Shown here: positions 19,614 to 31,510 of the stretch, one piece after another | Layout: each line of letters begins with the position of its first letter | Numbering within the stretch: position 1 is the first letter of the stretch | Source: Variovorax soli NBRC 106424 | GTDB taxonomy: Bacteria; Pseudomonadota; Gammaproteobacteria; Burkholderiales; Burkholderiaceae_C | Length of the DNA stretch: 64,000 nucleotides | Assembly: GCF_001591385.1 (NCBI RefSeq) | Contig: NZ_BCUU01000013.1 | Coordinates: forward strand, 1-64,000 | Reading direction: 5' to 3' | The notes under the pieces: model-generated | Seen by the model: the letters and a program-made list of their open reading frames with translations, nothing else | What the model was told of the DNA's origin: nothing | Database searches by the model: none | Made by a program: the position numbers and the translations under genes

Positions 19614-19704
19614 GGAGAGGTGGCAGAGTGGTCTAATGTACCTGACTCGAAATCAGGCGTGGGTTCATAGCCCACCGAGGGTTCGAATCCCTCCCTCTCC
19701 TCCA
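19614..19704 (+). tRNA. tRNA-Ser (anticodon CGA)
   Basis: The 91-base gene folds as a class II tRNA. It has a 7-bp acceptor (GGAGAGG with CCTCTCC), an anticodon stem CCTGA/TCAGG with loop CTCGAAA, a long variable arm, a T arm GAGGG-TTCGAAT-CCCTC, and an encoded CCA at 19702-19704. The anticodon CGA reads UCG serine codons. Position 73 reads T rather than the usual G. The 3' end is the integration site of the downstream element, and the tRNA is left intact at the integrase-proximal junction. Confidence 0.97.
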
Positions 19705-19705
19705 G
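19691..19705 (+). repeat. attL core, direct repeat in tRNA-Ser 3' end
   Basis: CTCCCTCTCCTCCAG covers the end of the T arm, the 3' acceptor strand, the encoded CCA and one further base. An identical copy stands at 31496-31510. tRNA 3' ends are the favoured targets of P4-type integrases. Confidence 0.85.
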
Positions 19706-19708
19706 AAC

Positions 19709-19734
19709 AACCCGCCTCGTGCGGGTTTTCTTTT
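19709..19734 (+). terminator. Rho-independent terminator after tRNA-Ser
   Basis: AACCCGC pairs with GCGGGTT around a four-base loop and is followed by a T-rich tract ending at 19734. It ends transcription from serS and the tRNA inside the left end of the island. Confidence 0.8.
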
Positions 19735-19738
19735 GCCC

Positions 19739-19783
19739 AAAGCCCCGCAAACCCGCATGAATACTGGGTCTCGGGGCTTTTTT
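19739..19783 (+). terminator. Second hairpin terminator, left end of island
   Basis: AAAGCCCCG at 19739-19747 pairs with CGGGGCTTT at 19772-19780 across a 24-base loop and is followed by more Ts. The same stem bases occur in the host-side terminator after the right attachment site at 31552-31579. Confidence 0.55.
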
Positions 19784-19827
19784 GCGTCCGCACCGGTCCG
19801 CGCGCGTTCTCCAAGGTTCATAATCTA

Positions 19828-19863
19828 TACATAGGAAGAAACGTAGGAACGAACGTAGGAGCA
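19828..19863 (+). repeat. 12-bp direct repeats, likely integrase arm sites (left)
   Basis: Three tandem units in exact 12-base register are seen: TACATAGGAAGA, AACGTAGGAACG and AACGTAGGAGCA. Two more copies of the unit in the same orientation and register lie at 31413-31436 near the right end. The paired location beside the attachment sites suggests arm-type binding sites for the integrase. The last unit also holds the ribosome binding site of the integrase gene, so binding could repress its own translation or transcription. Confidence 0.65.
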
Positions 19864-19868
19864 CCATC

Positions 19869-21245
19869 ATGGCTATCGCCAAGCTCACCGTGGCAGAGAT
19901 CAAGGCGCAGATGAAAAAGCCGGGCCGCCGCTTAATCGGAGACGGCGCGGGCCTGTGGTTGCACAAGGGAGCCGCGCTCGGCGTGGCCAGTTGGGTGTTC
20001 AGGTACGAGCGCGGGGGTAAGGTGCGCCACGTGGGTCTCGGGCCGCTGCACACCATCTCGTTGGAGATGGCCCGCACCAAGGCGCAGGAGGTCCGTGCGG
20101 CACTCTTGGAAGGCCGAGACCCGGCCGAGGAACGCGCCACCCACAAGCGCACCGCCACCTCGCGCGCCGCCCGCGCCGCTGCCCTGGGCAAGACTTTTGA
20201 GGAATTGGCGCTTGAACACATCGAGCGCAACGCGCCCGGGTGGGCCGAGAAGGCGAAGAAAGCCGCCTTGGCCGCAGGCAAGGAGCCGCCCAAGAAGGGC
20301 AGCGAAAACCAATGGCGCCAAAGCCTCACCGAGTATGCGTTTCCCATTCTTGGCCGCCTGCGCCCCGACGAGATTCAAACCGAGGATGTGCTGCGCGTGC
20401 TCCAGCAAGAGACCACCGCACGCGACGGCACCAAGGGCACCTTGTGGAACACGAAGAACGAAACCGCCGCACGGGTGCGCGGACGTATCGAGAACATCTT
20501 GGACGCGGCCATGGCGCGTGGCGTGGCCGCCAAGCGGCCCAACCCTGCGGCCTGGACCGGAGCCCTGGAGCACCTCCTGCCTGCAAGAGCGAAGGTCCAC
20601 AAACCCGTGCCCTTCGCGGCGCTGGACTGGCGCGAGATTCCCAAGTTCATGCGCGACTTGCGCAAGCGCCCCGGCGATGGTGCGCGGGCGCTTGAGGTAG
20701 CCATCTTGACCGGCGCGCGTACCAACGAGGTGGTGGGCTTGAAGTGGTCGGACCTACACGACCTGCAAGGCGAGGAGGCCGCGTGGTTGCTGGCCGATGC
20801 TGCCATGAAGATGGGCGAGCGCCATGCGGTGCCGCTGCCCGCGCGGGTGGTGGACATACTCACCGCGCAGCCTCGGCGCCCGGATTGCGCCCACGTGCTT
20901 GCGGCGCAAAAGAGCGCAGATGCACCATGGCTCGCGCTGGGTGAAAACGCCATGCTCGCCGTCCTCGATGAGATGAAGGTGGCCGCCACCGTGCATGGCA
21001 TGAGAGCCGCATTTCGCACCTGGGTCCTGGAGAACACCACCTTCAAAAAGGAACTCGCCGAGCTTTGCCTCGCCCACACCACTGGCGAGTCCGACGCCGA
21101 AAGGTCCTACATCCGAGGCAGTGCCTTCGATCAGCGCCGGGAACTATTGGAAGCTTGGGCCCATTACTGCGAAGGCCTGCCGCCCGTGGACCCCCACGTT
21201 CGAGTCCCTGCCAAGCGCGGCGCAAAGCTGACGGCAGTGGGTTAG
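19869..21245 (+). CDS. int: P4-type tyrosine integrase of the island
   Basis: This 458-residue site-specific recombinase has an N-terminal DUF4102 arm-binding domain (LTVAEIKAQMKKPGRRLIGDGAGLWLHK region). The SAM-like core-binding domain is at about 110-240 and the catalytic domain follows. The catalytic Arg is in LTGARTNEVVGL, the His-x-x-Arg is HGMRAAFR, and LAHTTGESDAERSYIR supplies the second His and the Tyr nucleophile. GTAGGAGCACCATC gives the ribosome binding site. It lies directly inside the tRNA junction, pointing into the element, as in P4-like islands. Confidence 0.95.
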   Translation: MAIAKLTVAEIKAQMKKPGRRLIGDGAGLWLHKGAALGVASWVFRYERGGKVRHVGLGPLHTISLEMARTKAQEVRAALLEGRDPAEERATHKRTATSRAARAAALGKTFEELALEHIERNAPGWAEKAKKAALAAGKEPPKKGSENQWRQSLTEYAFPILGRLRPDEIQTEDVLRVLQQETTARDGTKGTLWNTKNETAARVRGRIENILDAAMARGVAAKRPNPAAWTGALEHLLPARAKVHKPVPFAALDWREIPKFMRDLRKRPGDGARALEVAILTGARTNEVVGLKWSDLHDLQGEEAAWLLADAAMKMGERHAVPLPARVVDILTAQPRRPDCAHVLAAQKSADAPWLALGENAMLAVLDEMKVAATVHGMRAAFRTWVLENTTFKKELAELCLAHTTGESDAERSYIRGSAFDQRRELLEAWAHYCEGLPPVDPHVRVPAKRGAKLTAVG

Positions 21246-21666
21246 GTAAGTCGGCTCCCGGGGGTCGCCCTGGCGGTATTGAATTGCAACGAACGTATGC
21301 GAACGTTTGCGAATTTCCAAAGAGCGGATTTTCTGGTGTTTTGCTCTTTGAGCCGAGAAGAATTGGCCTGGAGATGAAATTTCCATGCCAAAGTGAGTGA
21401 CTGCTCCGGCGAATTGCGTTTGCACACGCGAGAGTGAGGGCTCTAGATGTTGGTCAATTGAATGGCTGGTAATGACACTCGTAGACATTCGTTTTTGGCT
21501 TGGTGAACAGTAGGGGGCAAAAGCTAAATTCTCCGAATGTCTGTAAGGTTCGCTCAAGTCCACAGAAGTACGGAAGTTAAAAAACAAAAGCCTCGGGTTT
21601 TCCTATTGATCTAGTGGTGGGTCTGAAAATAATTTGGCGAGTCTCTTCAATTGGAGGGCGCACCAA
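21246..21666. other. Gene-free AT-richer regulatory stretch
   Basis: About 420 bases between the integrase and the AlpA-like gene contain no supported coding sequence and are clearly lower in G+C than the flanks. Two 10-base direct repeats, GAACGTATGC and GAACGTTTGC, stand at 21291-21310. An A/T-rich block with AATAAT lies close to the AlpA-like gene. This is the likely site of satellite promoters and of regulator or excisionase binding. Confidence 0.5.
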
Positions 21667-22035
21667 ATGCAATTCAATCAAGCCATATTGGCTCCTGGCT
21701 CGGCAAATTCGGGGCAACGCTTAATGCGCTTGAGTGAGGTTTTGGCCCTCACGACGTTGGGCCGCACCGCCTTGTTTGCGGCGGTGGCGGCAGGGACATT
21801 TCCTCCGCCGCGCAAGCTGACCGGCAGCGGCCGGGCCGTCGCCTGGGTAAGTGGGGAAGTGGACGCATGGATGTGCTCGCGCCCCCCATCTACTGCCAAT
21901 GGGTGGCAACCACCCGAGCGGGCGGTATCGGCCACGGCGCAGCCCAAGACTCTGAGCAAGCACGGGCGCCCTATTGGAAGGCCACCGAAATCCCGGACCC
22001 CGGAGACCACCGGCAGCGGCGCCGCCGCTGGATGA
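21667..22035 (+). CDS. AlpA-family regulator with AT-hook-like tail
   Basis: This is a 122-residue protein. The middle part is an AlpA/MerR-like helix-turn-helix: LMRLSEVLALTTLGRTALFA, then GTFPPPRKLTGSGRAVAWVSGEVDAWM. AlpA proteins activate integrase and excision genes in P4-like islands. After about residue 80 the tail is basic and Pro/Gly-rich, with GRPIGRPPKSR, two GRP cores as in AT-hooks, which is unusual for this family. TTGGAGGGCG precedes the ATG at 21667. A TTG 33 bases upstream lacks a ribosome binding site. Confidence 0.82.
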   Translation: MQFNQAILAPGSANSGQRLMRLSEVLALTTLGRTALFAAVAAGTFPPPRKLTGSGRAVAWVSGEVDAWMCSRPPSTANGWQPPERAVSATAQPKTLSKHGRPIGRPPKSRTPETTGSGAAAG

Positions 22036-22155
22036 CAAACGGGCCGGGGCTCTCGCCACCGACCCGCCGCCAACTTCGCGAACCATTTCCACGCGCAAGT
22101 CTAGGCAGCGACCGCGAGAGGTGCAACCCGGCCCTCCAACCCCCTGGAGGGAGCC

Positions 22156-22389
22156 ATGGCACCCAACACTCAGTCCGAGCACGCCCGTGATGGCCTGGAC
22201 CTCTTGGTGGACATCCGAGATGCCCGCCGCCGCATCGCGCTGGCGATGTCGGCCTTGGAGGACCTGCGCGGCAATCCGGTAGTGGACCTCGCGGCCATCA
22301 ACCGCCACCGCCGCCTCCTGGGCGCGGAATTGCGGGCGGCCTGGATCATCGCGCGGGACATCTTGGCCAGCTGCGGGAGGCGCGGATGA
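22156..22389 (+). CDS. Small helical hypothetical protein of the island
   Basis: This 77-residue protein was not recognised. It is almost all predicted helix, with LLVDIRDARRRIALAMSALE and a second basic helix HRRLLGAELRAAWIIARD. GGAGGGAGCC precedes the ATG at 22156. The stop overlaps the start of the helicase gene by four bases (ATGA), so it is probably real and co-translated with it, perhaps as a replication accessory protein. Confidence 0.55.
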   Translation: MAPNTQSEHARDGLDLLVDIRDARRRIALAMSALEDLRGNPVVDLAAINRHRRLLGAELRAAWIIARDILASCGRRG

Positions 22390-23987
22390 ATGCGCGCGAT
22401 GTCACCGCCGAGGCCGACGCGGAAGGGGATGGCCTGCGGGTGCCACCGCACGACAACGATGCCGAGTGCGGGGTGCTCGGCGGCTTGCTCATGGACAACA
22501 CGGCATGGCCCGTGGTGCGCGACAAGATCAACGCCGCCGACTTCTTTCGGCATGAACACCGCCTCATTTTTGTGGCCATCTCTGCTTTGTTGGAGTCCGG
22601 TGAACCCGCCGATGTCATCACGGTATATGCGCGGCTCCAACACGACGGCCGTGCCGAGGAGGTCAATGGGGTCTCGTATCTGGACAAGCTGGCGCAATAC
22701 CGGCTCGCGCCGGACCACCTGGGCGCCTACGCGGACATCGTGGCCAAGTGCGCCACTCAACGTCGCATGGTCGCCGCTGGCGACGCCATCACCGCCCTTG
22801 CGTTCAATCCACAGGGCCGCGCATTGGCCGAGATCATGGGCGAGGCCCGGGGCCTCGTGGAACGCGCCGCCAATGGCCAGGTGGTGGCCTCCACGCCCTG
22901 GCGTTGGGCCGAACCCGCCCGCGTGGACCTCACCGCCGTCGCCGTACGCGGTGCACCCGAACGGTTTTGGTTCCGGCGCGACTGGATGACCACCGGGCCC
23001 ATGCTCCTGGCCGGTGCGGGTGGCATGGGCAAGTCATTGCTCGTGCAACAGGAGGCCACCTTGGGCGCCATGGGCGCACCCTTCTTTGGGCAGGCCTGCG
23101 AACCGTACAAGAGCCTTCTGTGGTGCTGCGAGGATGATGTAGATGAACTGGAGCGGCGCCAATTGCGCATCTGCCAGCACCACGAGGTGGACTTGGCCAA
23201 GTTGGCCGACACCGGCCGCTTGCTCATCGAGTGCCGCAAGGGTTCAGACAACGCACTCATGGAGGAGTTGGGCGGGCGCCTCCTGCCCACGCCGCAACTC
23301 GCGCTCCTACGCGAGCAAGTCAACGATTTGGGCGTGGAGGTCCTGTGGCTGGACAACGCCGCGCATGTGTTCCTCGGGGACCATGACAACCGCGTTGCTG
23401 TCACCACGTTCGTCAATGCGTTGGGCGCCCTGGTGGGGGGCCGTCCCTTCATGGTGGCCATCGTGACCCACCCGGCGCGCGCCAGAGATTCCGAATGGAG
23501 CGGCTCGGTGGCTTGGGAGGCCGCCGTGCGCATGCGCTGGTTCTTCGGGGACAAGCTGCCCGACCAAAAGGATGCGGACGCAGAGGGCTCCGCCAGCAAC
23601 GTGCGGTTCCTTGCCCGCCGCAAGACCAACTACTCTGCGCGCGACTACGCCCGCTTCATTACCCGCGAAGGCCTCTTGGTGCCCGACATCGCGCCCACCA
23701 GCGGCCTCCTGTCTGCGCTCACTGACCGGCACACCGAGGACCTCGTGTTGCGTGGATTCACCGCGCTGGAGGCCATCGGAGTGCGCACAACGGATGGCGT
23801 CACAAGCCCCGACTTTTTGCCGCGCCAGATCATGGCCAAGGGATGGGCCGAGGGCCTCACCAAGAACGAATTGAGCCGCGCCATGAATCGCCTCATGGGC
23901 CGTGGCGTTCTGGTTCGGGCAGTCATCGGCCAGCACGCCAACCGCTCCCAGAAGTACGGCCTTATTCGCAAGGACTCCGCCCCATGA
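22386..23987 (+). CDS. DnaB N-domain / RepA-like helicase fusion
   Basis: This is a 533-residue replication protein. Residues of about 18-125 match the helical DnaB N-terminal domain (DNDAECGVLGGLLMDN, INAADFFRHEHRLIFVAI). Residues of about 190-400 are a RecA-fold ATPase of the RSF1010 RepA type, with Walker A LLAGAGGMGKSLL, SLLWCCEDDVDELERR and Walker B VEVLWLDNAAHVF. The C-terminal 100 residues look like a winged helix (LPRQIMAKGWAEGLTKNELS). The start overlaps the previous gene. Iteron-like repeats and a large hairpin follow its stop, consistent with an origin served by this protein. Confidence 0.85.
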   Translation: MNARDVTAEADAEGDGLRVPPHDNDAECGVLGGLLMDNTAWPVVRDKINAADFFRHEHRLIFVAISALLESGEPADVITVYARLQHDGRAEEVNGVSYLDKLAQYRLAPDHLGAYADIVAKCATQRRMVAAGDAITALAFNPQGRALAEIMGEARGLVERAANGQVVASTPWRWAEPARVDLTAVAVRGAPERFWFRRDWMTTGPMLLAGAGGMGKSLLVQQEATLGAMGAPFFGQACEPYKSLLWCCEDDVDELERRQLRICQHHEVDLAKLADTGRLLIECRKGSDNALMEELGGRLLPTPQLALLREQVNDLGVEVLWLDNAAHVFLGDHDNRVAVTTFVNALGALVGGRPFMVAIVTHPARARDSEWSGSVAWEAAVRMRWFFGDKLPDQKDADAEGSASNVRFLARRKTNYSARDYARFITREGLLVPDIAPTSGLLSALTDRHTEDLVLRGFTALEAIGVRTTDGVTSPDFLPRQIMAKGWAEGLTKNELSRAMNRLMGRGVLVRAVIGQHANRSQKYGLIRKDSAP

Positions 23988-23988
23988 C

Positions 23989-24092
23989 CTGCACAAACTC
24001 CTGCACAAATTCGCGCCCAAACTATCCAGCACACCCGCACAAACTTGCGCACACACACATCCCCCCTTTAGGGGGGTGTGGTGAGTGTGTGC
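23989..24092. other. Putative replication origin: iterons and hairpin
   Basis: Right after the helicase stop come CTGCACAAACTC (23989-24000) and CTGCACAAATTC (24001-24012), with a related CCGCACAAACTT at 24035-24046. A large imperfect hairpin spans 24049-24092 around the perfect stem CCCCCC-TTTA-GGGGGG (24061-24076), flanked by CA-rich and TG-rich arms. Iterons plus a hairpin beside a rep gene is the usual layout of autonomously replicating satellites. The assignment is inference. Confidence 0.45.
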
Positions 24093-24111
24093 AGATTGTT
24101 GGAGTGCGTGC

Positions 24112-24576
24112 ATGACCAAACCCACCAATGCCCGCCGCTCCCTGCGCGAGATGGCCGCGTTGTGGGGCCCTTCGTCCACGCCATCACCGACCACCGAAAG
24201 GAACAACGCCATGGACCACCCCTCCATCACACGCACCCCAGACGGCGATTACTGGATGTCCCCCGGAGCCATCCTCTGGCAAGGTGCGCTTACCGCCTAT
24301 GCGCCCCTCGGCAGCAAGCACGGCAGTGAATCCCCCGAGGGCCGCGACAATGCCCGCCGCTTCGTCATGTCAGTGCTCGCCGCCGCCCGAGAGGCCGGAA
24401 TGCCCGCCGCTGCCGTGCGACAACTGCAACGGGTCGCCGAGCGGGTCACCAACCACGCGAGTGACACTCGCAGCATGCGTGAGCTATTGGCCCACTGCGA
24501 ACGGGCCGCCGCGCATGTAGCGCGCCCAAAACTTCTGGAGTTGATCGTCACCGCCATGAAAGGGGATGAGTCGTGA
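24112..24576 (+). CDS. Hypothetical island protein
   Basis: This 154-residue protein was not recognised. The first 40 residues are polar and disordered (MTKPTNARRSLREMAALWGP). A conserved-looking part follows: DYWMSPGAILWQGALTAYAPLG, then helices ARRFVMSVLAAAREAGMPAAAV and ELLAHCERAAAHVARPKLLE. TTGGAGTGCG precedes the ATG at 24112. Its GTGA junction with the HNH gene indicates coupling. It sits between replication and packaging genes. Confidence 0.6.
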   Translation: MTKPTNARRSLREMAALWGPSSTPSPTTERNNAMDHPSITRTPDGDYWMSPGAILWQGALTAYAPLGSKHGSESPEGRDNARRFVMSVLAAAREAGMPAAAVRQLQRVAERVTNHASDTRSMRELLAHCERAAAHVARPKLLELIVTAMKGDES

Positions 24577-24968
24577 AGCTACTCAAGCCCTCCTTGCCCA
24601 TGCTGCGCTCCAACCTGCCCACCCTGGACCACGAGAACGTGGGTGGTGTGCAGTCCAAGCGCCTGCGTGGCGGGAACCTCACGGCCTTGCGCCGCCGCAT
24701 GTTGGCCGCCTCTGGCCAACGGTGCCAATGCGAGGAGTGCCAAGCCTCGGGCCTGCCCATGGCCCTCACCATGGCCACCATGGAGTTGGATCATCGCGTC
24801 CCGCTCGCCCTCGGTGGTGGGCATGAGCTATCGAACCTGCGCGCGGTCCACGTCACATGCCACCGACGCATCACCGCCGAGCAAGCGCCCATCCTGCAAG
24901 GCCGCACCTGGGCCGATGCGGTGGACATGCCACTGAGCAAGCCCTCCGACTTCGATGTGTGCGGATGA
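24573..24968 (+). CDS. HNH endonuclease
   Basis: This 131-residue nuclease has Cys pairs in GQRCQCEECQASG and VHVTCHRR that form the zinc site. The catalytic HNH core reads MELDHRVPLALGGGHELSNL. Small HNH proteins encoded just before terminase genes are needed for DNA packaging in many HK97-type phages. Here the next gene is terminase-small-like, so the same role is inferred. The start is GTG at 24573 with AGGGGATGAG before it, overlapping the preceding stop. Confidence 0.88.
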   Translation: MKLLKPSLPMLRSNLPTLDHENVGGVQSKRLRGGNLTALRRRMLAASGQRCQCEECQASGLPMALTMATMELDHRVPLALGGGHELSNLRAVHVTCHRRITAEQAPILQGRTWADAVDMPLSKPSDFDVCG

Positions 24969-25166
24969 TCGGCGCTGCATTAAAAGAACGCGTTTAAGCC
25001 GGGGGACCCCTTCGAGCTAGCGCGAACGGCTCGGGACCGGGCGATTGCTGCCGGGCGTGCCGCTACTTCTCCGTTTTCTTGGTGCCCTTGAAATTCGGGC
25101 GCCCGCGCGCGAAGAATGGGCTCACTTAACCGCCGCTGATCGGCGTTGATCGAAGGGAAAACGACG

Positions 25167-25406
25167 ATGACCGCAAGACGACGAGTGGACGCCACGGTGG
25201 CAACGCCTGGGTTGGACTACCTGCGCGCGGTGCTCGCGGACCCGCGCAGTACGAAGGCCCAAAAGCTCAAGGTGGCCTTGGTATTGGCGGCCAGCGAGAA
25301 GGCGCGCATCACCCGCGCGTTTGAGCCCACCAAGAAGGAGCGGGAGGTGGCTGCGGCCAATGCGCCCTCGGACTGGGACGCCCTGCTCACTCCAACAAAG
25401 CAATGA
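25167..25406 (+). CDS. Terminase-small-subunit-like protein
   Basis: This is a 79-residue protein. The segment TPGLDYLRAVLADPRSTKAQ followed by KLKVALVLAASEKARI has the pattern seen in small terminase subunits of HK97-type phages (a P-x-x-Y-x-x-x-V-x-x-D-P helix, then an Ala-rich helix). It follows the HNH nuclease, the usual gene order of a packaging module. AAGGGAAAACGACG precedes the ATG at 25167. The stop overlaps a new ATG (ATGA) whose frame ends early. The assignment is by motif and position only. Confidence 0.5.
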   Translation: MTARRRVDATVATPGLDYLRAVLADPRSTKAQKLKVALVLAASEKARITRAFEPTKKEREVAAANAPSDWDALLTPTKQ

Positions 25407-25519
25407 GCCCCTTTGGACCTCCTGGCCGCCCGGTTCCGGATCGGGTTGTGGCATGCTCCGACCGGCCGTTGTCGGCCAGAAGCGGACCTACGGCAGGAGG
25501 TCGCGGTTTGTCCGTTTAA
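25403..25519 (+). pseudogene. Truncated coupled reading frame, possible remnant of a packaging gene
   Basis: An ATG at 25403 overlaps the previous stop in the same ATGA style as the other plus-strand island genes, but the frame (starting MSPFGPPGRPVPDRV) runs only 38 codons. In phage gene order the large terminase would start here. The frame meets the inverted ECF41/CMD cargo about 60 bases later. I read it as the 5' stub of a gene removed when the cargo arrived. The peptide is too short to identify the parent. Confidence 0.3.
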
Positions 25520-25583
25520 GGTGCGCCGCAGCAGCCCTCCGAGGCCAGCGACGCTGGGTTGGCGCACCTGCTTTACGCTGACA

Positions 25584-26033
25584 TCAGGCCTTTGCCCGTG
25601 GCTTCAAGCGGAAGCTGATCCCCATGCGGTTGATCGCGTTCATGGCGGCGATGGTCAGCGTCAAGTCCACCAGGTCTTTCTCCCCGAATACCGCTGCAGC
25701 TGCTGCATAGGCCTCGTCAGATGCATGCGTCTCACTGACGCGCGTCACTTCCTCGGACCAGGCCAGCGCCGCGCGCTCCTGCTCAGTGAACAGGTAGGCG
25801 GCTTCGTGCCACACGGGGACCAGCACGATTTTCTCGACGGACATACCTTCCTTGATGAGATCCCGCGTGTGGATGTCGATGCAGTGCGCGCAACCGTTGA
25901 GCTGCGAGACCCGGAGAAAGACGAGGTGGACGAGTAGGCTTGGCAGGCTCGTTCCAGTCGTGACGAAGTGGTGAAGGCCGCCCACGGCCTTTGCACCTTC
26001 GGGCGAGACGGCGAACCAATTTGCGCGCTGCAT
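25584..26033 (-). CDS. Carboxymuconolactone decarboxylase/AhpD-like protein (island cargo)
   Basis: This 149-residue protein of the CMD/AhpD family has the redox motif CAHCIDIHTRDL with Cys-x-x-Cys and the downstream His. LPSLLVHLVFLRVSQLNG and DEAYAAAAAVFGEKDLVDLTLTIAAMNAINRMGI complete the helical family pattern. Such proteins act as alkylhydroperoxidase-like reductases. AAAGGAAAGCAACGT precedes the ATG at 26033. A match to the ECF41 promoter lies 63 bases upstream, and an ECF41 gene follows on the same strand upstream, so control by that sigma factor is expected. Confidence 0.88.
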   Translation of the reverse strand: MQRANWFAVSPEGAKAVGGLHHFVTTGTSLPSLLVHLVFLRVSQLNGCAHCIDIHTRDLIKEGMSVEKIVLVPVWHEAAYLFTEQERAALAWSEEVTRVSETHASDEAYAAAAAVFGEKDLVDLTLTIAAMNAINRMGISFRLKPRAKA

Positions 26034-26095
26034 ACGTTGCTTTCCTTTGCTGTGAGGGGTTACGCGGGCCACACATTGCGACCCACTGCCTGTAA

Positions 26096-26122
26096 GACGT
26101 TTGAGCAGCAGCAGTTGTGACA
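26096..26122 (-). promoter_or_regulatory. ECF41-type promoter of the CMD gene
   Basis: Read on the minus strand the site is TGTCACA, 16 bases, CGTC. This is the -35/-10 pair known for ECF41 sigma factors, with matching spacing. In window coordinates TGTGACA is at 26116-26122 and GACG at 26096-26099. It points at the CMD gene and lies between it and the ECF41 gene. Confidence 0.8.
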
Positions 26123-26189
26123 GCGCGCACTGGCCTTTTATGGCTGTGCGAGCCGACAGCGCTTGAAAAGTAAGAGGCGAGCTAATTCT

Positions 26190-27107
26190 CTAGGCCATCT
26201 GACGTTGTCGATGCGCCAGATGCTCCAGATGGTGGAGTTTCTCGGGGTTGCGCTGAAGGCGCACGCGAGCGATTCGACCGTCCTGGATCTCGAACATCTG
26301 GACGGAATCCAGAGCATCCCCAACGTAGCGGAGAAGCGCCCATTCGCCGTTCAACCTTGTGAGGTCGAATCGCATGTTCGTGCCGTGGCGCAGTTGCGAA
26401 GCCAAGTACATCTGAGCGATGCGCCGCCCGCCTACCAGCGGCTTTGCAAGCCTTGGAACAATGTCACCAAAATCGCTCAGGAACTGAGCTTCTTCCGCGA
26501 GCAATGCTTGAATGTCCGAGAAGTTTCCCTTTGAGATGGCCTGGACCAGGCGTTGCAACAGGTCCAACTGCTCCTGAGGTCGAGGCGGGGCTTGGTTGCC
26601 AATGGAACTGCGGGCTTTCGCAACGCGTTGTTTGGCCCGATGAACGACTTGCCGAGCGGCAGCCTCGCTTTTGCCGATGGCTGCCGCGATTTGGTCATAG
26701 TCGGCGTCGAACACTTCCCTCAGCAGGAAGGCGGCCCGAGACTCGGGCGAAAGGCAATCCAGGAGCACAAGAAACGCAAAGGAGACATCGTCTGCCAGCT
26801 CGCGCGCCTTCTCGGGCGTTGTCGGCTCCTCCATCAACAATGGCTCGGGCAGCCATAGGCCTGGATAGGCCTCGCGCCGTATCTTTGCCGTGCGGAGGCG
26901 GTCAATTGCCATCCGAGTGGTCACAGTGACAAGCCACGCCTCTGGCTTGGCAACTTCTGCGCCGGACACTTCGACTTCCTCATGCCAACGAAGCCAAGCG
27001 TCCTGCGCCAGGTCCTCAGCCTCTTGAACAGAAGCAAGCATGCGATACCCAATGGCCACCAGCCTTGGGCGCAGGCGTAAGAAGAGTTCTTCATTGGCGA
27101 TGGACAT
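26190..27107 (-). CDS. ECF41-type sigma factor with SnoaL-like C-terminal domain (island cargo)
   Basis: This 305-residue sigma factor has region 2 at about 10-75 (AIGYRMLASVQEAEDLAQDA, VTTRMAIDRLRTAK). The ECF41 linker motif WLPEPL is at about 85. Region 4 is at about 115-165 (LSPESRAAFLLREVFDADYD, IGKSEAAARQVVHRAKQRV). The last 120 residues are an NTF2/SnoaL-like domain that in ECF41 proteins controls activity in place of an anti-sigma factor. The terminal RNPEKLHHL corresponds to the family NPDKL motif. The ATG at 27107 is preferred over an upstream GTG. Its base composition is lower in G+C than the flanking island genes. Confidence 0.9.
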   Translation of the reverse strand: MSIANEELFLRLRPRLVAIGYRMLASVQEAEDLAQDAWLRWHEEVEVSGAEVAKPEAWLVTVTTRMAIDRLRTAKIRREAYPGLWLPEPLLMEEPTTPEKARELADDVSFAFLVLLDCLSPESRAAFLLREVFDADYDQIAAAIGKSEAAARQVVHRAKQRVAKARSSIGNQAPPRPQEQLDLLQRLVQAISKGNFSDIQALLAEEAQFLSDFGDIVPRLAKPLVGGRRIAQMYLASQLRHGTNMRFDLTRLNGEWALLRYVGDALDSVQMFEIQDGRIARVRLQRNPEKLHHLEHLAHRQRQMA

Positions 27108-27337
27108 GGTGAGAGAGTCTAAGCAGGCCCGATTCCGGGGTAATACTGCCACCCCGCAAGAAGCTGATCGGCAGCTTCGGGCCCGGAGCGGACGGAAGCC
27201 CATGAGGCCTTAACTTCCACCGACAGGCTGCACCCCTGTTTGCTGATCTGCGCGCGTAGGCGTACCCTTCGCCCGACGCGGACCGCAGAGCCCGCTCGGG
27301 ACTCACCTTGAGGGAACCACCCCCAAGGAGCCCTGAC
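27108..27337. other. Junction between cargo and capsid genes
   Basis: This 230-base stretch between the ECF41 start and the next island gene has no supported coding sequence. It should contain the sigma factor promoter, on the minus strand, and the right boundary of the cargo insertion. I see no TGTCACA-type site here and no clear target-site duplication matching the 25520-25583 side. Confidence 0.4.
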
Positions 27338-27625
27338 ATGCCCGATGAAGTTCTTGACCGTCCGCCCCGCGCCATTGCCGGCGCTCCCACGCCTCCCAAG
27401 AAGCCCATCACCGGTCGCGCTGGTGATGGCGGTGATGACCGGGAAGGGTTCCGGCTCTTCTTCAATGCGCTGGTGCGCTGGTACATCCACACACCCAAGC
27501 CCGAGCGCCTGAACCTCCCCAAAGGCGCACCGTACAGCGTGCTTGTAGAGCACATCAACGCGGCGGTTGCGGAGCGCGCCGCGCGCGAGGCCGCGATGGC
27601 CAGCGTCCGGAGGGTGCAGCCATGA
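27338..27625 (+). CDS. Small island protein before the capsid gene
   Basis: This 95-residue protein was not recognised. It has a Pro-rich disordered start (MPDEVLDRPPRAIAGAPTPP) and a helical end (FRLFFNALVRWYIHTPKPER, HINAAVAERAAREAAMAS). CCAAGGAGCCCTGAC gives a strong ribosome binding site for the ATG at 27338. It overlaps the capsid gene by four bases. By position it could be a scaffold, a head-assembly helper or the remnant of a longer gene order. Confidence 0.6.
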   Translation: MPDEVLDRPPRAIAGAPTPPKKPITGRAGDGGDDREGFRLFFNALVRWYIHTPKPERLNLPKGAPYSVLVEHINAAVAERAAREAAMASVRRVQP

Positions 27626-28755
27626 GCGCCGCCACCGTCCTGGCGCCGCGCGCCAATGTCGTTCAAGCCCGTGATGTGGCCCGCGAGGCTACCCGCATGG
27701 CCATCTTGCGCGCCATGGGCGTGATGGGCTTGGCGCAAGCCCAAGGCCAGAGCCTGGAAGCCACGTTGGCCGCGAGCGTGAGCGAGGCCGAGATGGCGCT
27801 CACCCGCGCGGCCATCGGCTCCATCAATCGCAGTCCGCAGGGACCAGCCGTGACCACGGACCCGGAATGGGCCGGACTCTTGGCCGAGCCGAGCGTGGAG
27901 GCCTTCGTCTCGCTTTGGGCCGATGTGGGCATCGTGACCGCGCGGGCGCCGCTGCGCCGGTTCGTCTTCAACGGAAAGGCGCTGAAGCTGCCAATGCGCA
28001 CGAACATGGGGCCACCCAACTTGGCGGCCCACTGGCGCAGCGAAGGCAAGGGCATCCGCGTAGGGGCCATGCGCGTGGGCACGCAAGTGCTCGCGGGCCA
28101 ATCCATGGGCATCTTGAGCACCACCACGTTGGAGATGCTCAACGCGGCCGGGCCCGGTGTGCTGGATGCGGTGGTCCGCGCGGCCATCGTCATCGACTCG
28201 GCCACCGTGTTGGAGGCCACCGTGTGGAGCACCGACCCGGCCACCGGTGACGTGCCCGCAGGCCTGGGCAACGTACTGCCCGCCAACACGGCCATCTCCT
28301 CGGGCGCCACTGCCGACGCCATCACCGCCGACCTCCTCGCGCGCCTTGGCGCATTGATCGCGGCGGGCTATGGTTCGCCCTCCACGTTCCTGGCCATGAA
28401 TCGGCTCAACGAGGCCGCGCTCTATGCCAAGCTGCCCGAGATGCAGGCGCGCGCCACCGTGCTGGGTCTGCCGGTGTACGCGAGCGCCGAGATGCCGATG
28501 GACACGGTGTTTCTCGTGGATGGTGGCGCCGCGTGTTTCGGCGCGGACCCAGTACTCATCGAGACCTCGCAAAGTACGCTCTTGCACGAAGAGGGTGATG
28601 CAAATGCGGTGGCCGAGAACCTCGGCGCGGCCACGGCCCATCCGCAAAGGAGCGTGTGGCAAACCAACGCACTGTCCTGGCGCGGAACACTGAGCACCGG
28701 TTGGTGGGCACCACCGGGCGCGGTGCAAGTCCTCACGGGCGTGGCCTGGGCGTAG
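27622..28755 (+). CDS. HK97-fold phage major capsid protein
   Basis: This is a 377-residue protein. The first 75 or so residues are helical, then the HK97 body begins. FNGKALKLPMRTNMGPPN and WRSEGKGIRVGAMRVGTQVLAGQSMGIL are the P-domain region with the long strands. The A-domain follows, and the ending SVWQTNALSWRGTLSTGWWA then PPGAVQVLTGVAW is the typical C-terminus of this capsid family. No portal, prohead protease or large terminase gene is nearby, which is remarkable for a capsid gene. The N-terminal helical part might act as a built-in scaffold. Confidence 0.85.
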   Translation: MSAATVLAPRANVVQARDVAREATRMAILRAMGVMGLAQAQGQSLEATLAASVSEAEMALTRAAIGSINRSPQGPAVTTDPEWAGLLAEPSVEAFVSLWADVGIVTARAPLRRFVFNGKALKLPMRTNMGPPNLAAHWRSEGKGIRVGAMRVGTQVLAGQSMGILSTTTLEMLNAAGPGVLDAVVRAAIVIDSATVLEATVWSTDPATGDVPAGLGNVLPANTAISSGATADAITADLLARLGALIAAGYGSPSTFLAMNRLNEAALYAKLPEMQARATVLGLPVYASAEMPMDTVFLVDGGAACFGADPVLIETSQSTLLHEEGDANAVAENLGAATAHPQRSVWQTNALSWRGTLSTGWWAPPGAVQVLTGVAWA

Positions 28756-28764
28756 GAGGCGGCC

Positions 28765-29223
28765 ATGATGATCCACTACAACGCCGAACGCATGTTGGGC
28801 GCCGCGACGGTCACCAAGGGCCGCATCCGCCGCGAAGGCGAGTTTTTGCGGGTGACCTGCCCTAATGGATACGAGTTGAACGTGGCGGGCCACCGCCCAG
28901 ACATCGCCGCGCATCTGGCCGGAGGCGGGCCGATGTCCTGGCCGCCGCGTCCTGGTGATCCCACCATTGGCCCGTCGCCCGCAGCGCGTACCGATAAGCG
29001 GGCAGTGCCGCGCAAAGGCTTCACGTTGCGCGAGGTGGAGATGCTCGGGGACATGCTCAAGCCGGTGTTGCGTCCATTGCTGGAGGCCCACGCCAAAGCC
29101 ACGCGTGGTCCCGCCAAGGCGCCGATGACCAAGGCGCAGGCCATGGCCCGCATCGCGGGCATTCAAGCCGCCGTGGCCGTTGCCGAGGCCCGCGCCGCCG
29201 CCGCGTTGCGGATGGCCACCTGA
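28765..29223 (+). CDS. Hypothetical island protein after the capsid gene
   Basis: This 152-residue protein was not recognised. The N-terminal 55 residues look beta-rich (TVTKGRIRREGEFLRVTCPNG, ELNVAGHRPDIAAHL), then comes a Pro-rich linker and a long Ala-rich helix ending AVAEARAAAALRMAT. TAGGAGGCGGCC precedes the tandem ATG codons at 28765. Position after the capsid suggests a head decoration or completion protein, but nothing in the sequence proves it. Confidence 0.6.
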   Translation: MMIHYNAERMLGAATVTKGRIRREGEFLRVTCPNGYELNVAGHRPDIAAHLAGGGPMSWPPRPGDPTIGPSPAARTDKRAVPRKGFTLREVEMLGDMLKPVLRPLLEAHAKATRGPAKAPMTKAQAMARIAGIQAAVAVAEARAAAALRMAT

Positions 29224-29281
29224 TCGGTCCATTTTTGGACGTATCTCCGGCGACGGTATTCCGGCCGGTGGGAGAACCACC

Positions 29282-29473
29282 ATGGCCAGCACCGACACCA
29301 CCGGCCGCTCCGACTCGCAACGCCGCCGCCCCGGCCGCATGGAACGGCTCGTCACACCGCGCCCGCTGCTGCACCCTTCGCGCATCTTGGAGGCCTCCAA
29401 GCGGTTCTCCGACATCACCGTGGCCAAGGGCATCACCAAGGCTGTCTCGGGCGCCACCAAAGGGCCGCGATGA
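29282..29473 (+). CDS. Small basic island protein
   Basis: This 63-residue, Arg/Ser/Thr-rich protein (MASTDTTGRSDSQRRRPGRM start) is strongly basic and largely disordered, with LEASKRFSDITVAKGITKAV as the only likely helix. GTGGGAGAACCACC precedes the ATG at 29282. It overlaps the sigma-like gene by four bases. A nucleic-acid-binding role is possible but not shown. Confidence 0.55.
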   Translation: MASTDTTGRSDSQRRRPGRMERLVTPRPLLHPSRILEASKRFSDITVAKGITKAVSGATKGPR

Positions 29474-29730
29474 GCACCGGCAAGCCGGTGGCGCGCAAGG
29501 TGCTGGAGGCCCCCGTGGAGCGCGCCCACAGCACCGAGCCGATGACGTTGCAGGAGGTGGGCGAGGCCCTTGGTGTCACGCGCGAGCGGGTGCGGCAGAT
29601 TGAGGAACGGGCCTTGCGCAAGTGCGCCACGCTCCTGGCCGAGCGCGGCATCAGCGCGGACATCTTGGACGATGAGTTGGGCGCCACTGCCAGCTTGCTG
29701 GCCACGATGAGCCGCAACATGCGGCGGTGA
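29470..29730 (+). CDS. Free-standing sigma-70 region-4 protein
   Basis: This 86-residue protein has at its centre TLQEVGEALGVTRERVRQIE followed by ERALRKC. This is the helix-turn-helix of sigma-70 region 4.2, in the form used by primary sigma factors, where it reads the -35 box and contacts the RNA polymerase beta flap. Regions 1 to 3 are absent. The protein ends in a short acidic and helical tail (ADILDDELGATASLLATMSR). It is the last plus-strand gene of the capsid cluster and is coupled to the gene before it. It may redirect host or helper polymerase toward or away from certain promoters. Confidence 0.82.
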   Translation: MSTGKPVARKVLEAPVERAHSTEPMTLQEVGEALGVTRERVRQIEERALRKCATLLAERGISADILDDELGATASLLATMSRNMRR

Positions 29731-29735
29731 TTTGC

Positions 29736-30491
29736 CTATTGGACGCTGGGAGCCGAATGCAGCGCCAACCGCTCTAGCGAGCCAAACGGGAGCACTTTGG
29801 CCACGTTCTGCAAGATGGCCGCCTCCCGCTTGGCGCCCTCGGGGTCCGCCCGGTCATCCACCACTACGAGCAGCGGTAGCGCCGCGTTGTCGTGCGCGGA
29901 CCGGATGTCCACCAACCGCCTAAGCACCGCGCTGGCGGACCGGGGGTTAGGCGTAGCCACGGCCACGCCCTGGCCATCAAACAAGAAATCCAGCCGATGG
30001 GGCTTGCCACTGATGCCGGTGAACTCTGGGTTCTCGGTGATCGTTGCCGTAGGCTTCCAAGCCCGCAAGGCCGTGGCCACCTCATCCACCAAGAAGGTCA
30101 CATCCGTGCTCGCTCCCTCTTGATCCTTCTCCCACCGACACACCTCCAGCATCGCGGCCATGTACCGGCCGAAGGCATCCGCCGCCTGAGCCTCGGGCGC
30201 CCATGCCTCCATGTCGCCTTGGTCCGAGAACGTGGCGCCGTGGGCCTGCGCAGCCGTGGTGAGAAACCGGGTGTGCCTGCCGTCTTCCAACCGCATGCCC
30301 CGGCCCGTGAAGTGCATGACGGTGTGGCCATCATCAAAGAACCGCACCTGTCCGTTGGCCATCTCCACATAGACCGGCACCGCATCACCATCGGCAAACC
30401 GGAAAGGAGTAGACACGTGCGCCACCATCCCGCCTTCATCGAGCGGGGTGCAATCGAAACCCAACAGTGTGGTGAGGTGGGCGCAAATCAT
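29736..30491 (-). CDS. DUF1828-type protein of unknown function
   Basis: This is a 251-residue protein. The N-terminal 90 residues match the DUF1828 pattern: CTPLDEGGMVAHVSTPFRFA, then VPVYVEMANGQVRFFDDGHT. The C-terminal half has a Rossmann-like look, with RLDFLFDGQGVAVATPNPRS and LPLLVVVDDRADPEG. Its start overlaps the stop of the upstream partner gene (ATGA), so the two form an operon at the right end of the island, a usual place for accessory genes such as anti-phage functions. No catalytic site is evident. It converges with the sigma-like gene with only five bases between stops. Confidence 0.65.
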   Translation of the reverse strand: MICAHLTTLLGFDCTPLDEGGMVAHVSTPFRFADGDAVPVYVEMANGQVRFFDDGHTVMHFTGRGMRLEDGRHTRFLTTAAQAHGATFSDQGDMEAWAPEAQAADAFGRYMAAMLEVCRWEKDQEGASTDVTFLVDEVATALRAWKPTATITENPEFTGISGKPHRLDFLFDGQGVAVATPNPRSASAVLRRLVDIRSAHDNAALPLLVVVDDRADPEGAKREAAILQNVAKVLPFGSLERLALHSAPSVQ

Positions 30492-30958
30492 GGCTTCCCC
30501 TTGGGAGATGTCAGCTTAAACGTTTCCGGGTCTTCAATGGGTGGCTTGAATGTAATGTTGGCCCGTTGGCAAAAGTATTGCAGAGCCTCCTCAAAATCCC
30601 ACCTGGCCCAATCGGCGCGGCCCTCCTCCCGAGCGGTCCCGATGTGCTCGTGCGCATGCTCGTGCAAATTCTTAGGCCGGTGGGCCGTTGGCGTGATGTG
30701 CAGTTGGTACACCCGCAGCAACCCGCCGAGATGTGTCTGAAACAAGGTGAACTTGAAAGTTCGTTGCTTGGTCTTGGGTGACCTCGCAACCTGCAACCAG
30801 ACTTGAAAGCCCCCGAAGGAGCCGTCCGCCTCTACAAGTCCGCATTCCATGGAGTACATCCATGGCAAGACCTTGTTGGGCTTCCAGTCCGGCGCGTCCT
30901 GGCACTCGCGCGCGGCCTTCAATAGTTCTCTTGCCTCTGCCTCGGGTACGTCGTTCAA
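30488..30958 (-). CDS. Partner protein of the DUF1828 gene, unknown function
   Basis: This 156-residue protein was not recognised. It begins MNDVPEAEARELLKAARECQ and has a beta-rich centre (FGGFQVWLQVARSP, TFKFTLFQTHLGGLLRVYQL). A striking His-rich HEHAHEHIG follows at about 105-113, where metal or nucleotide binding would be possible, and then a helix WDFEEALQYFCQRANI. The start appears to be TTG at 30958 with GAGG nine bases upstream. The stop overlaps the DUF1828 start, so the two are translated together. The pair could be a defence or toxin-antitoxin unit. Confidence 0.55.
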   Translation of the reverse strand: MNDVPEAEARELLKAARECQDAPDWKPNKVLPWMYSMECGLVEADGSFGGFQVWLQVARSPKTKQRTFKFTLFQTHLGGLLRVYQLHITPTAHRPKNLHEHAHEHIGTAREEGRADWARWDFEEALQYFCQRANITFKPPIEDPETFKLTSPKGKP

Positions 30959-31036
30959 CGGCGCGGCCTCGTTGGGGGGTGGTGGTGCGCGATGGTAACG
31001 GAGCCGAGCCGCCCCAAAAGCTGGGGGAAGCCGCCA

Positions 31037-31303
31037 TCATGTAGATGCCCCCTCGGCCGTCTTGATCTTGGCGGCCAGTGGCACGCACCACCACGATTGC
31101 CGGTAGCGGTCGCCCTTGCTCTTGGAGCCCCGGAACACTACATCGTCGCCCGACAGGAGCACGCCGCCGCCTGCGATCTTCACTAGCCGCGCCGCGTACA
31201 AGCGGGCAACCTCCTCACCGGTCTCCACGTGGTGGAGAACCGCATGCACCTCGGCCGTGCCCTGGCCACGATCCACTGTGAGCACGCCCGAGCGGCCACG
31301 CAT
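31037..31303 (-). CDS. Small hypothetical protein at right end of island
   Basis: This 88-residue protein was not recognised. It is predicted all-beta, with GVLTVDRGQGTAEVHAVLHH, a GEEVARLYAARLVKIAGGGV segment and SWWCVPLAAKIKT. The ATG at 31303 is chosen. A GTG at 31369 would add 22 residues but lies inside an inverted-repeat cluster that looks regulatory. It is separated by 78 bases from the DUF1828 partner gene on the same strand and may belong to the same transcript. Confidence 0.45.
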   Translation of the reverse strand: MRGRSGVLTVDRGQGTAEVHAVLHHVETGEEVARLYAARLVKIAGGGVLLSGDDVVFRGSKSKGDRYRQSWWCVPLAAKIKTAEGAST

Positions 31304-31355
31304 GTAGAAGAGGTCCCCCGGTTTCTGTAGGGTGCCTCGTATTCGGAGCGGATAG

Positions 31356-31391
31356 ACAGTGCAAAACACTGTACAAGAATACAGTGTTTTG
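31356..31391. repeat. Cluster of three ACAGTG/CACTGT half-sites
   Basis: CAAAACACTGTA at 31362-31373 is a perfect inverted repeat of TACAGTGTTTTG at 31380-31391 with six bases between. A third half-site, ACAGTG at 31356-31361, pairs with the first copy at 31367-31372. Two alternative hairpins are possible. The site lies 105 bases inside the right attachment site and just upstream of the leftward gene at 31037-31303. It may be an operator or an accessory recombination site. Confidence 0.5.
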
Positions 31392-31412
31392 GGTGTCTTT
31401 TGAGGTGTTCTT

Positions 31413-31436
31413 AAACGTAGGAATAAACGTAGGAAG
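31413..31436 (+). repeat. 12-bp direct repeats, likely integrase arm sites (right)
   Basis: AAACGTAGGAAT and AAACGTAGGAAG are two tandem units in 12-base register, sharing ACGTAGGA with the three units at 19828-19863 near the left end. Both sets have the same orientation in the window. They end 59 bases before the right core. Confidence 0.65.
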
Positions 31437-31495
31437 AGATGGGTGACTTTTTTGAAAAGTCCGTTTCATGCGGGTTCCAGGCCGATTGTGAGGGA

Positions 31496-31510
31496 CTCCC
31501 TCTCCTCCAG
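31496..31510 (+). repeat. attR core, direct repeat
   Basis: CTCCCTCTCCTCCAG is identical to 19691-19705 in the tRNA-Ser 3' end. Bases upstream of it do not continue the tRNA T arm, so the crossover lies within these 15 bases. Confidence 0.85.

What the first reader, a model, noticed from the sequence alone, without database searches (positions are those of the whole stretch)
19691..31510. Compact phage-satellite-like island with a lone capsid gene
Between the two 15-bp att repeats lie an integrase, AlpA, a DnaB-N/RepA helicase, an HNH nuclease, a terminase-small-like protein and an HK97-fold capsid, but no large terminase, portal, protease or tail genes. Capsid-forming satellites described so far carry more of the head module. 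This one may borrow everything but the shell, may build small particles with helper parts, or may be a decayed one. The combination with its own sigma-like protein and cargo is unfamiliar to me.
Basis: partly seen in the sequence, partly recalled or inferred. Interest (0 to 1): 0.88.

Follow-up and report, generated by a model that had tools for sequence, protein, structure and literature searches.

The report
Small phage satellites with lone capsids
This stretch of a soil bacterium's chromosome looks like an 11.8-kb parasite of phages that carries its own gene for the virus shell but no other recognised head or tail gene, and it belongs to a recurring family of similar-sized elements, so it is probably a real, intact kind of element rather than a broken virus, close in layout to one already known from E. 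coli.

Summary
The island lies between 15-bp repeats at 19691-19705 and 31496-31510, at tRNA-Ser; two Variovorax relatives show the empty site. It encodes integrase, AlpA, a DnaB-N/AAA protein, HNH and an HK97-type capsid; no TerL, portal or protease was found. 'Terminase-small-like' is only weakly supported.

It does not look decayed. Seven of 101 Variovorax genomes carry nine such islands (10.5-11.8 kb), each with tRNA att repeats, an open capsid frame followed by the same small gene, and no TerL, portal or protease detected. The nine capsids form one clade (98/96) beside phage capsids with longer N-termini. Six further att-bounded islands of this kind were found outside Variovorax, two apparently with a tape-measure gene.

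The layout has precedents: E. coli EcCICFT073, a Gram-negative PICI, has int-AlpA-primase-SSB-capsid-decoration in 11.2 kb with an unrelated capsid; SaPIbov5 Ccm is a lone capsid homologue that gives small heads.

Best reading: PICI-type satellites that supply a capsid subunit, and probably a partner, for small heads, borrowing portal, large terminase, protease and tail. Whether the shell is all-satellite or mosaic is open. No induction or particle was tested.

The parts
19614..19704 (+). tRNA-Ser(cga), integration site
   Evidence: ARAGORN
19691..19705 (.). att repeat, left copy
   Evidence: sequence; empty site in L082/L085
31496..31510 (.). att repeat, right copy
   Evidence: sequence
19869..21245 (+). 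tyrosine integrase, 458 aa
   Evidence: PF13356, PF22022, PF00589
21634..22035 (+). AlpA-type protein (true start probably further in)
   Evidence: PF05930 9.9e-13
22156..22389 (+). small ORF, unknown
   Evidence: no Pfam or PHROG hit
22386..23987 (+). replication protein, DnaB N-domain + AAA_25
   Evidence: PF00772, PF13481
24085..24576 (+). ORF, unknown
   Evidence: no hit
24573..24968 (+). HNH endonuclease
   Evidence: PF01844 2.8e-8; PHROG 333
25167..25406 (+). possible small terminase (weak); homologues in L049 and L050
25584..26072 (-). cargo: carboxymuconolactone decarboxylase family
   Evidence: PF02627
26190..27203 (-). cargo: ECF-type sigma factor with SnoaL-like C-terminus
   Evidence: PF04542, PF08281, PF12680
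27308..27625 (+). small ORF overlapping the capsid start by 4 bases
27622..28755 (+). HK97-type major capsid protein, 377 aa, short N-terminal region
   Evidence: PHROG 617 1.5e-8; nine-member clade; aligns to L051 from residue 58
28765..29223 (+). capsid partner 'c6', directly after the capsid in 9 of 9 Variovorax islands
   Evidence: HMM trained on the same nine; low-confidence model with two long C-terminal helices
29282..29473 (+). small ORF
29470..29730 (+). small sigma-region-4-like HTH protein, also after c6 in L007 and L048
   Evidence: PF04545 8.1e-13
29736..30491 (-). cargo: DUF1828 protein
   Evidence: PF08861; homologue in L029
30488..30958 (-). cargo: unknown, paired with the DUF1828 gene here and in L029
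31037..31369 (-). ORF, unknown

Best explanation
The island is an intact, integrated phage satellite of Gram-negative PICI type. Shown: exact tRNA integration with att repeats, an integrase/AlpA/replication module, and a capsid + c6 module conserved in nine islands, with no TerL, portal or protease detected. Inferred: when a helper phage is active the island excises and replicates with its own proteins; its HNH, a possible TerS or another adaptor directs the helper's large terminase to its DNA; its capsid protein, with c6, gives heads small enough for about 11 kb; portal, protease (if needed), large terminase and tail come from the helper. It is left open whether the shell is entirely satellite protein or a mosaic with helper capsid protein, as for Ccm.
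For: Nine islands in 7 of 101 Variovorax genomes, each bounded by 15-45 bp tRNA repeats and 10.5-11.8 kb long, mean 11.2, SD 0.44. Open capsid frame in 9 of 9; dN<dS in 36 of 36 pairs; one clade, 98/96. c6 follows the capsid in 9 of 9. TerL, portal and protease HMMs give no hit at E<=0.05 in any of 15 att-to-att islands (best 0.61), while leave-one-out recovers 10/10, 11/11 and 9/9 known ones. L011 carries a clear TerS (PHROG 83 9.3e-16; one member of the scan, presumably the same, hits Terminase_4 at 2.4e-11). G000, with two islands, also has an HK97-like prophage-type region, a possible helper. EcCICFT073 has the same order and size. Ccm is a precedent for a lone capsid homologue giving small heads.
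Against: No induction, excision, packaging or particle was tested. No cos-like DNA is shared between the islands and the G000 prophage region, only matches of chance length. phrog_9 TerL was found in only 1 of the 5 island genomes searched (G868 and G879 not searched, other TerL families not searched), so a resident helper is not evident in four of them. [quoted passage not shown] The capsid fold model was poor (pLDDT 41) and no PDB sequence matched the profile. Reverse-strand cargo departs from the one-directional layout stated for Gram-negative PICIs. Uniform size has no control set.
Confidence: 0.62

Rival explanations
1. Ccm-like mosaic: the satellite capsid protein cannot close a shell alone but joins helper capsid protein (for example as pentamers) and so redirects the helper to small heads. 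This is the mosaic branch of the best explanation, so its odds overlap with it.
For: Ccm is 355 aa with an 87-residue delta domain, 24% identical to the helper protein, without a protease identified in its element, and alone forms no capsids. The satellite proteins are 341-390 aa with a shorter N-terminal region than phage relatives and no protease detected. Their local identity to the G000 prophage capsid is 23-29% over part of their length, E from 9e-11 to 6.
Against: A conserved partner gene (c6) in 9 of 9 islands suggests a module of its own. The nearest phage capsid type (L051) was seen in 1 of 101 Variovorax genomes.
Confidence: 0.3
2. Decayed prophage or decayed cfPICI in which cargo replaced TerL, portal and protease.
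For: In the window, HNH and the possible TerS are followed by reverse-strand cargo where TerL, portal and protease stand in phages. Satellite-like loci of other genera, and L054, carry partial head modules (L027, L030, L032, L033, L054). In two Sinorhizobium records the capsid match is broken.
Against: Nine similar-sized, att-bounded islands with open frames and one capsid clade, all lacking the same genes. Loss once, long ago, is possible; present decay is not what is seen.
Confidence: 0.08
3. The capsid protein is an anti-phage weapon: it poisons helper head assembly, and the island is not packaged in small heads.
For: Satellites interfere with helpers; EcCICFT073 packages phage-sized DNA despite its capsid gene.
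Against: In EcCICFT073 deleting the capsid gene did not relieve interference. The similar island sizes fit a head constraint better, by inference.
Confidence: 0.12
4. An encapsulin-like protein compartment unrelated to packaging.
For: A lone HK97-type protein without portal or terminase.
Against: No encapsulin family hit; nearest relatives found are phage head proteins; it sits in an integrative element with int, AlpA and replication genes.
Confidence: 0.03

Closest known systems
EcCICFT073 and Gram-negative PICIs (PMC6092414: passages and section 6 read; region read in NC_004431.1)
   Same: int, AlpA, primase, SSB, capsid, small partner, no TerL or portal annotated; 31-bp repeats 11.2 kb apart. 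By BLASTP at E<1e-3 its integrase matches those of 8 of 15 islands (the window at 1.5e-6), its AlpA 2, its primase 1 and its SSB 1.
   Different: Its capsid shows no detectable relation to the nine (no hit with their HMM; hhalign E 0.7), nor its decoration protein to c6. No tRNA is annotated at its ends in the stretch read. It packages phage-sized DNA.
SaPIbov5 Ccm (PMC8569155: abstract and passages read)
   Same: A lone HK97-fold capsid homologue with a short N-terminal domain, in a satellite in which no protease was identified.
   Different: Gram-positive host; helper cos site present; Ccm shown to sit in pentamers with helper protein. No sequence comparison was made here.
Capsid-forming PICI (definition read in passages of PMC10690885 and PMC11389934; the original paper was not read)
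   Same: Satellite with its own capsid gene.
   Different: cfPICIs carry capsid, protease, portal, connectors, both terminase subunits and HNH; protease, portal, TerL were not found in the window.
PmCI172 of Pasteurella (PMC6092414 passages)
   Same: Gram-negative PICI with a capsid homologue and small heads by microscopy.
   Different: Its sequence was not examined here.

Membership tests
Capsid-forming PICI | Own major capsid protein | tested here: met
Capsid-forming PICI | Own protease, portal, connectors, TerL | tested here: not met
   Pfam/PHROG scans; HMMs for TerL, portal and protease with leave-one-out control; connectors only by the family scans
Capsid-forming PICI | Own TerS and HNH | tested here: inconclusive
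   HNH clear; TerS weak
Gram-negative PICI (EcCICFT073 type) | Integrase, AlpA, replication gene in this order at an att site | tested here: met
Gram-negative PICI (EcCICFT073 type) | One-directional transcription | tested here: not met
   Core genes on +, but five cargo or unknown ORFs on - (25584-27203, 29736-31369). The source states the feature for the set it studied; no transcripts were seen
Gram-negative PICI (EcCICFT073 type) | Attachment site not used by prophages | not tested
   No survey of prophages at this tRNA was made
Gram-negative PICI (EcCICFT073 type) | Induction and transfer by a helper phage | not testable with these tools
   needs induction experiments
SaPIbov5 / Ccm type | Capsid homologue that redirects helper head size | not testable with these tools
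   architecture similar; function untested
SaPIbov5 / Ccm type | Helper cos site in the island | tested here: inconclusive
   No shared site with the one prophage region looked at in G000; true helper unknown
P4-like satellite | Psu / Sid-type genes | tested here: not met
   No such Pfam family among the 16 window proteins scanned; the gene list is recalled
Encapsulin | Encapsulin family match | tested here: not met
   Pfam scan of the six capsids of A1, the window's among them, gave only Phage_capsid, in 1 of 6

The most novel reading that the evidence does not exclude
A widespread, unnamed class of satellites in Variovorax and Alphaproteobacteria (Sinorhizobium at least) encodes only the shell: a shortened capsid protein plus one or two small assembly partners (c6, and in 7 of 9 Variovorax islands, though not in the window, a peptide gene with an LGxxLRxx[LF] motif just upstream) that by themselves set an about 11-kb head, onto which helper portal, terminase and tail are docked across unrelated head families.
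Probability: 0.32. Interest if true: 0.76.

Novelty: new variant of a known kind. Interest (0 to 1): 0.55.

Why it matters
Satellites are sorted by how much of the virion they make. These islands sit between PICIs that at most remodel heads and cfPICIs that make whole heads. A lone capsid is seen in at least three settings not joined by the sequence evidence here (EcCICFT073 with a capsid not detectably related, the Variovorax clade, and the separate L112/L114 branch). That suggests selection for this minimal state and makes a plain question testable: can a satellite's shell protein accept another phage's portal and terminase, or does it co-assemble with the helper's?

Tried and rejected
Rejected: present-day decay, encapsulin (see rivals). 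Led nowhere: AlphaFold of the capsid with the few permitted rows (pLDDT 41), so no fold search was run; PDB sequence search with profile A1, 0 hits at E<=1; INPHARED phages with the window capsid, no match; scans of genome and viral contigs with single proteins, no relative or only the query's own contig; viral contigs with a three-row profile, none, with profile A1 one phage-type contig, L024; genome contigs with the three-row profile, only two islands already known (L055 = L009, L056 = L011); cos-like DNA shared with the G000 prophage region, none; conserved sites near the capsid, found only between pairs and one of them coding; anti-phage genes by PADLOC, 3 families in 57 proteins, not pursued; papers joining Variovorax, satellite, prophage and capsid: 0. 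Other literature searches; no description of these islands was seen in their listings, but the library is open-access only, lists were capped, and most hits were seen as listings only.

Limits of the absence claim: the PHROG tally of 57 proteins showed 25 of 38 families, that of 93 proteins 25 of 105, and the Pfam tally of 93 showed 25 of 40; only the Pfam tally of the 57 is complete (15 families). The 57 leave out integrases, capsids and some short ORFs of the 86 listed; the 93 leave out 22 ORFs of up to 125 aa from the 115 listed. The tallies do not say which protein matched. The HMMs cover the HK97-like type only; the recovered genes were training rows, which is why repeats it leave-one-out and att to att. 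The LGxxLRxx[LF] motif was picked after seeing the sequences, so its count (9 matches upstream of capsid in 7 islands, 3 elsewhere in 15 islands) is descriptive.
Full report
What is there. The window lies in a Variovorax genome (G000). The island runs from the 3' end of tRNA-Ser(cga) to a second copy of a 15-bp repeat, 19691-19705 and 31496-31510. Of 29 relatives' loci compared, two (L082, L085) have the window's right flank immediately after the tRNA, 88% and 90% identical over 76-77 bp; three more have only a 27-bp match at the same spacing; 24 have none. So the ends are real.

Gene content. On the + strand: integrase, AlpA, a small ORF, a DnaB-N/AAA_25 replication protein, an unknown ORF, HNH, a small ORF (25167-25406), then after a reverse-strand cargo pair (CMD family and an ECF-type sigma factor) a short run: small ORF, capsid, c6, small ORF, sigma-r4-like HTH. 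Three reverse-strand ORFs close the island, one of them DUF1828. The pairing of an ECF sigma with SnoaL-like end and a CMD gene recalls the ECF41 group; that label is from memory. The capsid matches PHROG 617 'major head protein' (1.5e-8); of six relatives scanned, the window's included, one reaches Pfam Phage_capsid (1.3e-4).

The possible small terminase. The window ORF itself hits nothing. Homologues in L049 and L050 are 58 and 56% identical and hit three TerS PHROGs at E 0.013, 0.069 and 0.01. An HMM from two TerS C-terminal regions scores L049 at 0.0018, W at 0.029 and L050 at 0.41 among the nine islands; profile comparison gives P 0.0033 but a probability of only 9.7%. HNH followed by this ORF occurs in W and L050; in the G000 prophage region HNH is likewise followed by a short gene before TerL, a TerS by position only. 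I rate it as possible, not established.

Relatives in the genus. The window capsid found relatives in 5 of 101 genomes searched, its own included. A profile of six found 11 of 101 Variovorax genomes. Contexts of all 11 were read: seven genomes hold nine lone-capsid islands (W and L007 in G000; L008, L009, L010, L011, L048; L049 and L050 in G868); G876, G057 and G862 hold phage-type loci (L051, L052, L053), and G023 an int-primase-capsid-protease element (L054). The nine islands have perfect repeats of a tRNA end: Ser(cga) 15 bp, Ser(gga) 19, Val 45, Gly 23, Asn 45, Cys 44, Gly 20, Arg 15, Gly 23, in the order W, L007-L011, L048-L050. Sizes are 11.8, 11.8, 11.4, 10.9, 11.3, 10.5, 11.2, 10.8 and 11.2 kb. 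No control set of capsid-free islands was measured, so the similar size is suggestive only.

What they lack and share. Pfam and PHROG scans of 57 further proteins from six islands gave, in the lists shown, one packaging match, TerS, which is L011's. Scans of 93 proteins from nine more loci showed tape-measure families but no TerL, portal or protease in the parts of the lists shown. HMMs built from 10 TerL, 11 portal and 9 protease sequences of this study gave no hit at E<=0.05 in six-frame translations of 15 att-to-att islands (best: TerL 0.61 in L126); leave-one-out models recovered 10 of 10, 11 of 11 and 9 of 9 of the known genes. The gene after the capsid, c6, is present in 9 of 9 (its HMM was trained on the same nine, L009 being weakest at 2.4e-15). 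A low-confidence model of the window c6 shows a small beta part and two long C-terminal helices (pLDDT 59, two-row alignment). Upstream of the capsid, 7 of 9 islands encode a peptide motif LGxxLRxx[LF]; the window and L007 do not.

Evolution. In a tree of 24 capsids the nine form one clade (98/96), joined next by L051 (99/95) and then L024 (100/100); the root is a midpoint. Local alignments with L051 start at satellite residues 3-67 against L051 residues 110-161, an offset of 83-105 residues except L049 (138, perhaps a late start call); with L024 the offset is 70-123. So the satellite proteins have a clearly shorter N-terminal region than these phage forms. dN is below dS in 36 of 36 pairs, but dS is near saturation except for L049/L050 (0.17 against 0.43).

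Beyond Variovorax. At family level 10 of 399 genomes matched at 1e-10: G000, four with prophage-type loci (L025, L026, L028, L034) and five with satellite-like loci whose capsids lie outside the nine (L027, L029-L033), several with more head genes; L029 and L030 are cut by contig ends. At order level 1 of 399 matched at 1e-20, G000 itself. At phylum level 3 of 388 matched at 1e-15: G000, a phage-type locus (L113) and L112. A plasmid search gave one record, Sinorhizobium sp. K101 (L114). L112 and L114 are lone-capsid islands with 47- and 49-bp tRNA repeats, 9.8 and 10.8 kb. A sweep of the order of G1062 found 11 of 387 genomes, 12 places; I read seven and two before (L112, L113), leaving those of G1283, G1169 and G1069 unread. 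L126, L128 and L129 are att-bounded islands of 11.6, 10.8 and 10.4 kb and L127 of 16.1 kb, all with capsid and without TerL, portal or protease by the HMMs. L130 and L132 look alike but no att site was found (L132 was not scanned for tRNAs), and L132's capsid frame is short; L131 is phage-type. The scans hold tape-measure matches in one (Pfam) and two (PHROG) proteins, presumably the long ones of L126 and L127. L112 and L114 pair together (95/92) away from the nine, so the lone state needs two changes on that tree (L112 is a long branch). Against conservation there: in Sinorhizobium C101 and M103 the nearly identical capsid match is in two pieces, one base longer, a frameshift or sequencing error, and a Bradyrhizobium plasmid has the match under two separate annotated proteins.

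Helper. G000 holds an HK97-like prophage-type region: TerL by PHROG, HNH, protease, capsid and portal by similarity to proteins labelled here, and long tail-like genes. It is a possible helper; no shared packaging site was found. phrog_9 TerL was absent from the other four island genomes searched; other TerL families, and G868 and G879, were not searched.

Comparison with what is known. cfPICIs are described as having capsid, protease, portal, connectors, both terminases and HNH (passages of PMC10690885), so the island is not one. Gram-negative PICIs are the closest: EcCICFT073 was reported to encode a putative capsid and a head decoration protein, deletion of either not relieving interference, with phage-sized packaged DNA, while PmCI172 has a capsid homologue and makes small heads (passages of PMC6092414). 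I read the EcCICFT073 region: int, AlpA-like, primase, SSB, capsid 351 aa, decoration protein, with a 31-bp repeat 11.2 kb apart. Its capsid is not detectably related to the nine. Ccm of SaPIbov5 shows that a lone capsid homologue, 24% identical to the helper's, can redirect head size by taking the pentamers, yet forms no capsid alone (passages of PMC8569155).

Judgement. The island is most likely an intact satellite with PICI-type layout and a lone HK97-type capsid module, one of a family. The mechanism after excision is inferred. I give 0.62 that the capsid protein takes part in making heads for the island, split about evenly between an own shell and a mosaic.

Noticed in passing
L126 6701-8533, L127 6155-8368, L032 12454-15099, L031 12018-14933: Small int-capsid islands that also seem to encode a tail tape-measure protein (PHROG for L032; presumably L126 and L127; L031 by similarity and size only) but no other recognised tail gene; such a satellite might set its helper's tail length.
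   Followed up: partly
L027, L030, L032, L033, L054: Satellite-like loci of related genera, and L054 in Variovorax, carry different partial head modules: capsid+protease+HNH+TerL, capsid+portal, capsid+protease.
   Followed up: partly
upstream of capsid in L008, L009, L010, L011, L048, L049, L050: A short gene with one or two LGxxLRxx[LF] motifs lies just before the capsid in 7 of 9 Variovorax islands, in several overlapping its start; possibly a scaffold-like peptide.
   Followed up: partly
window 25584-27203: Divergent cargo of an ECF-type sigma factor with SnoaL-like end and a CMD-family gene inside the satellite.
   Followed up: no
window 29736-30958 and L029 7929-9175: The DUF1828 gene and its neighbour occur as a pair near the end of two different satellite-like loci.
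   Followed up: no
L009 11865-12530 and L011 12211-13026: A protein of the radical-SAM type (two members; PHROG 13321 and a weak 'DNA repair photolyase' match) is shared cargo in two islands at 76% DNA identity.
   Followed up: no
G000, G868, G923: Three genomes carry two lone-capsid islands each at different tRNA genes.
   Followed up: yes
NZ_CP104135.1 and NZ_CP104127.1: The Sinorhizobium island's capsid gene has near-identical matches in two further isolates, but there in two pieces.
   Followed up: no
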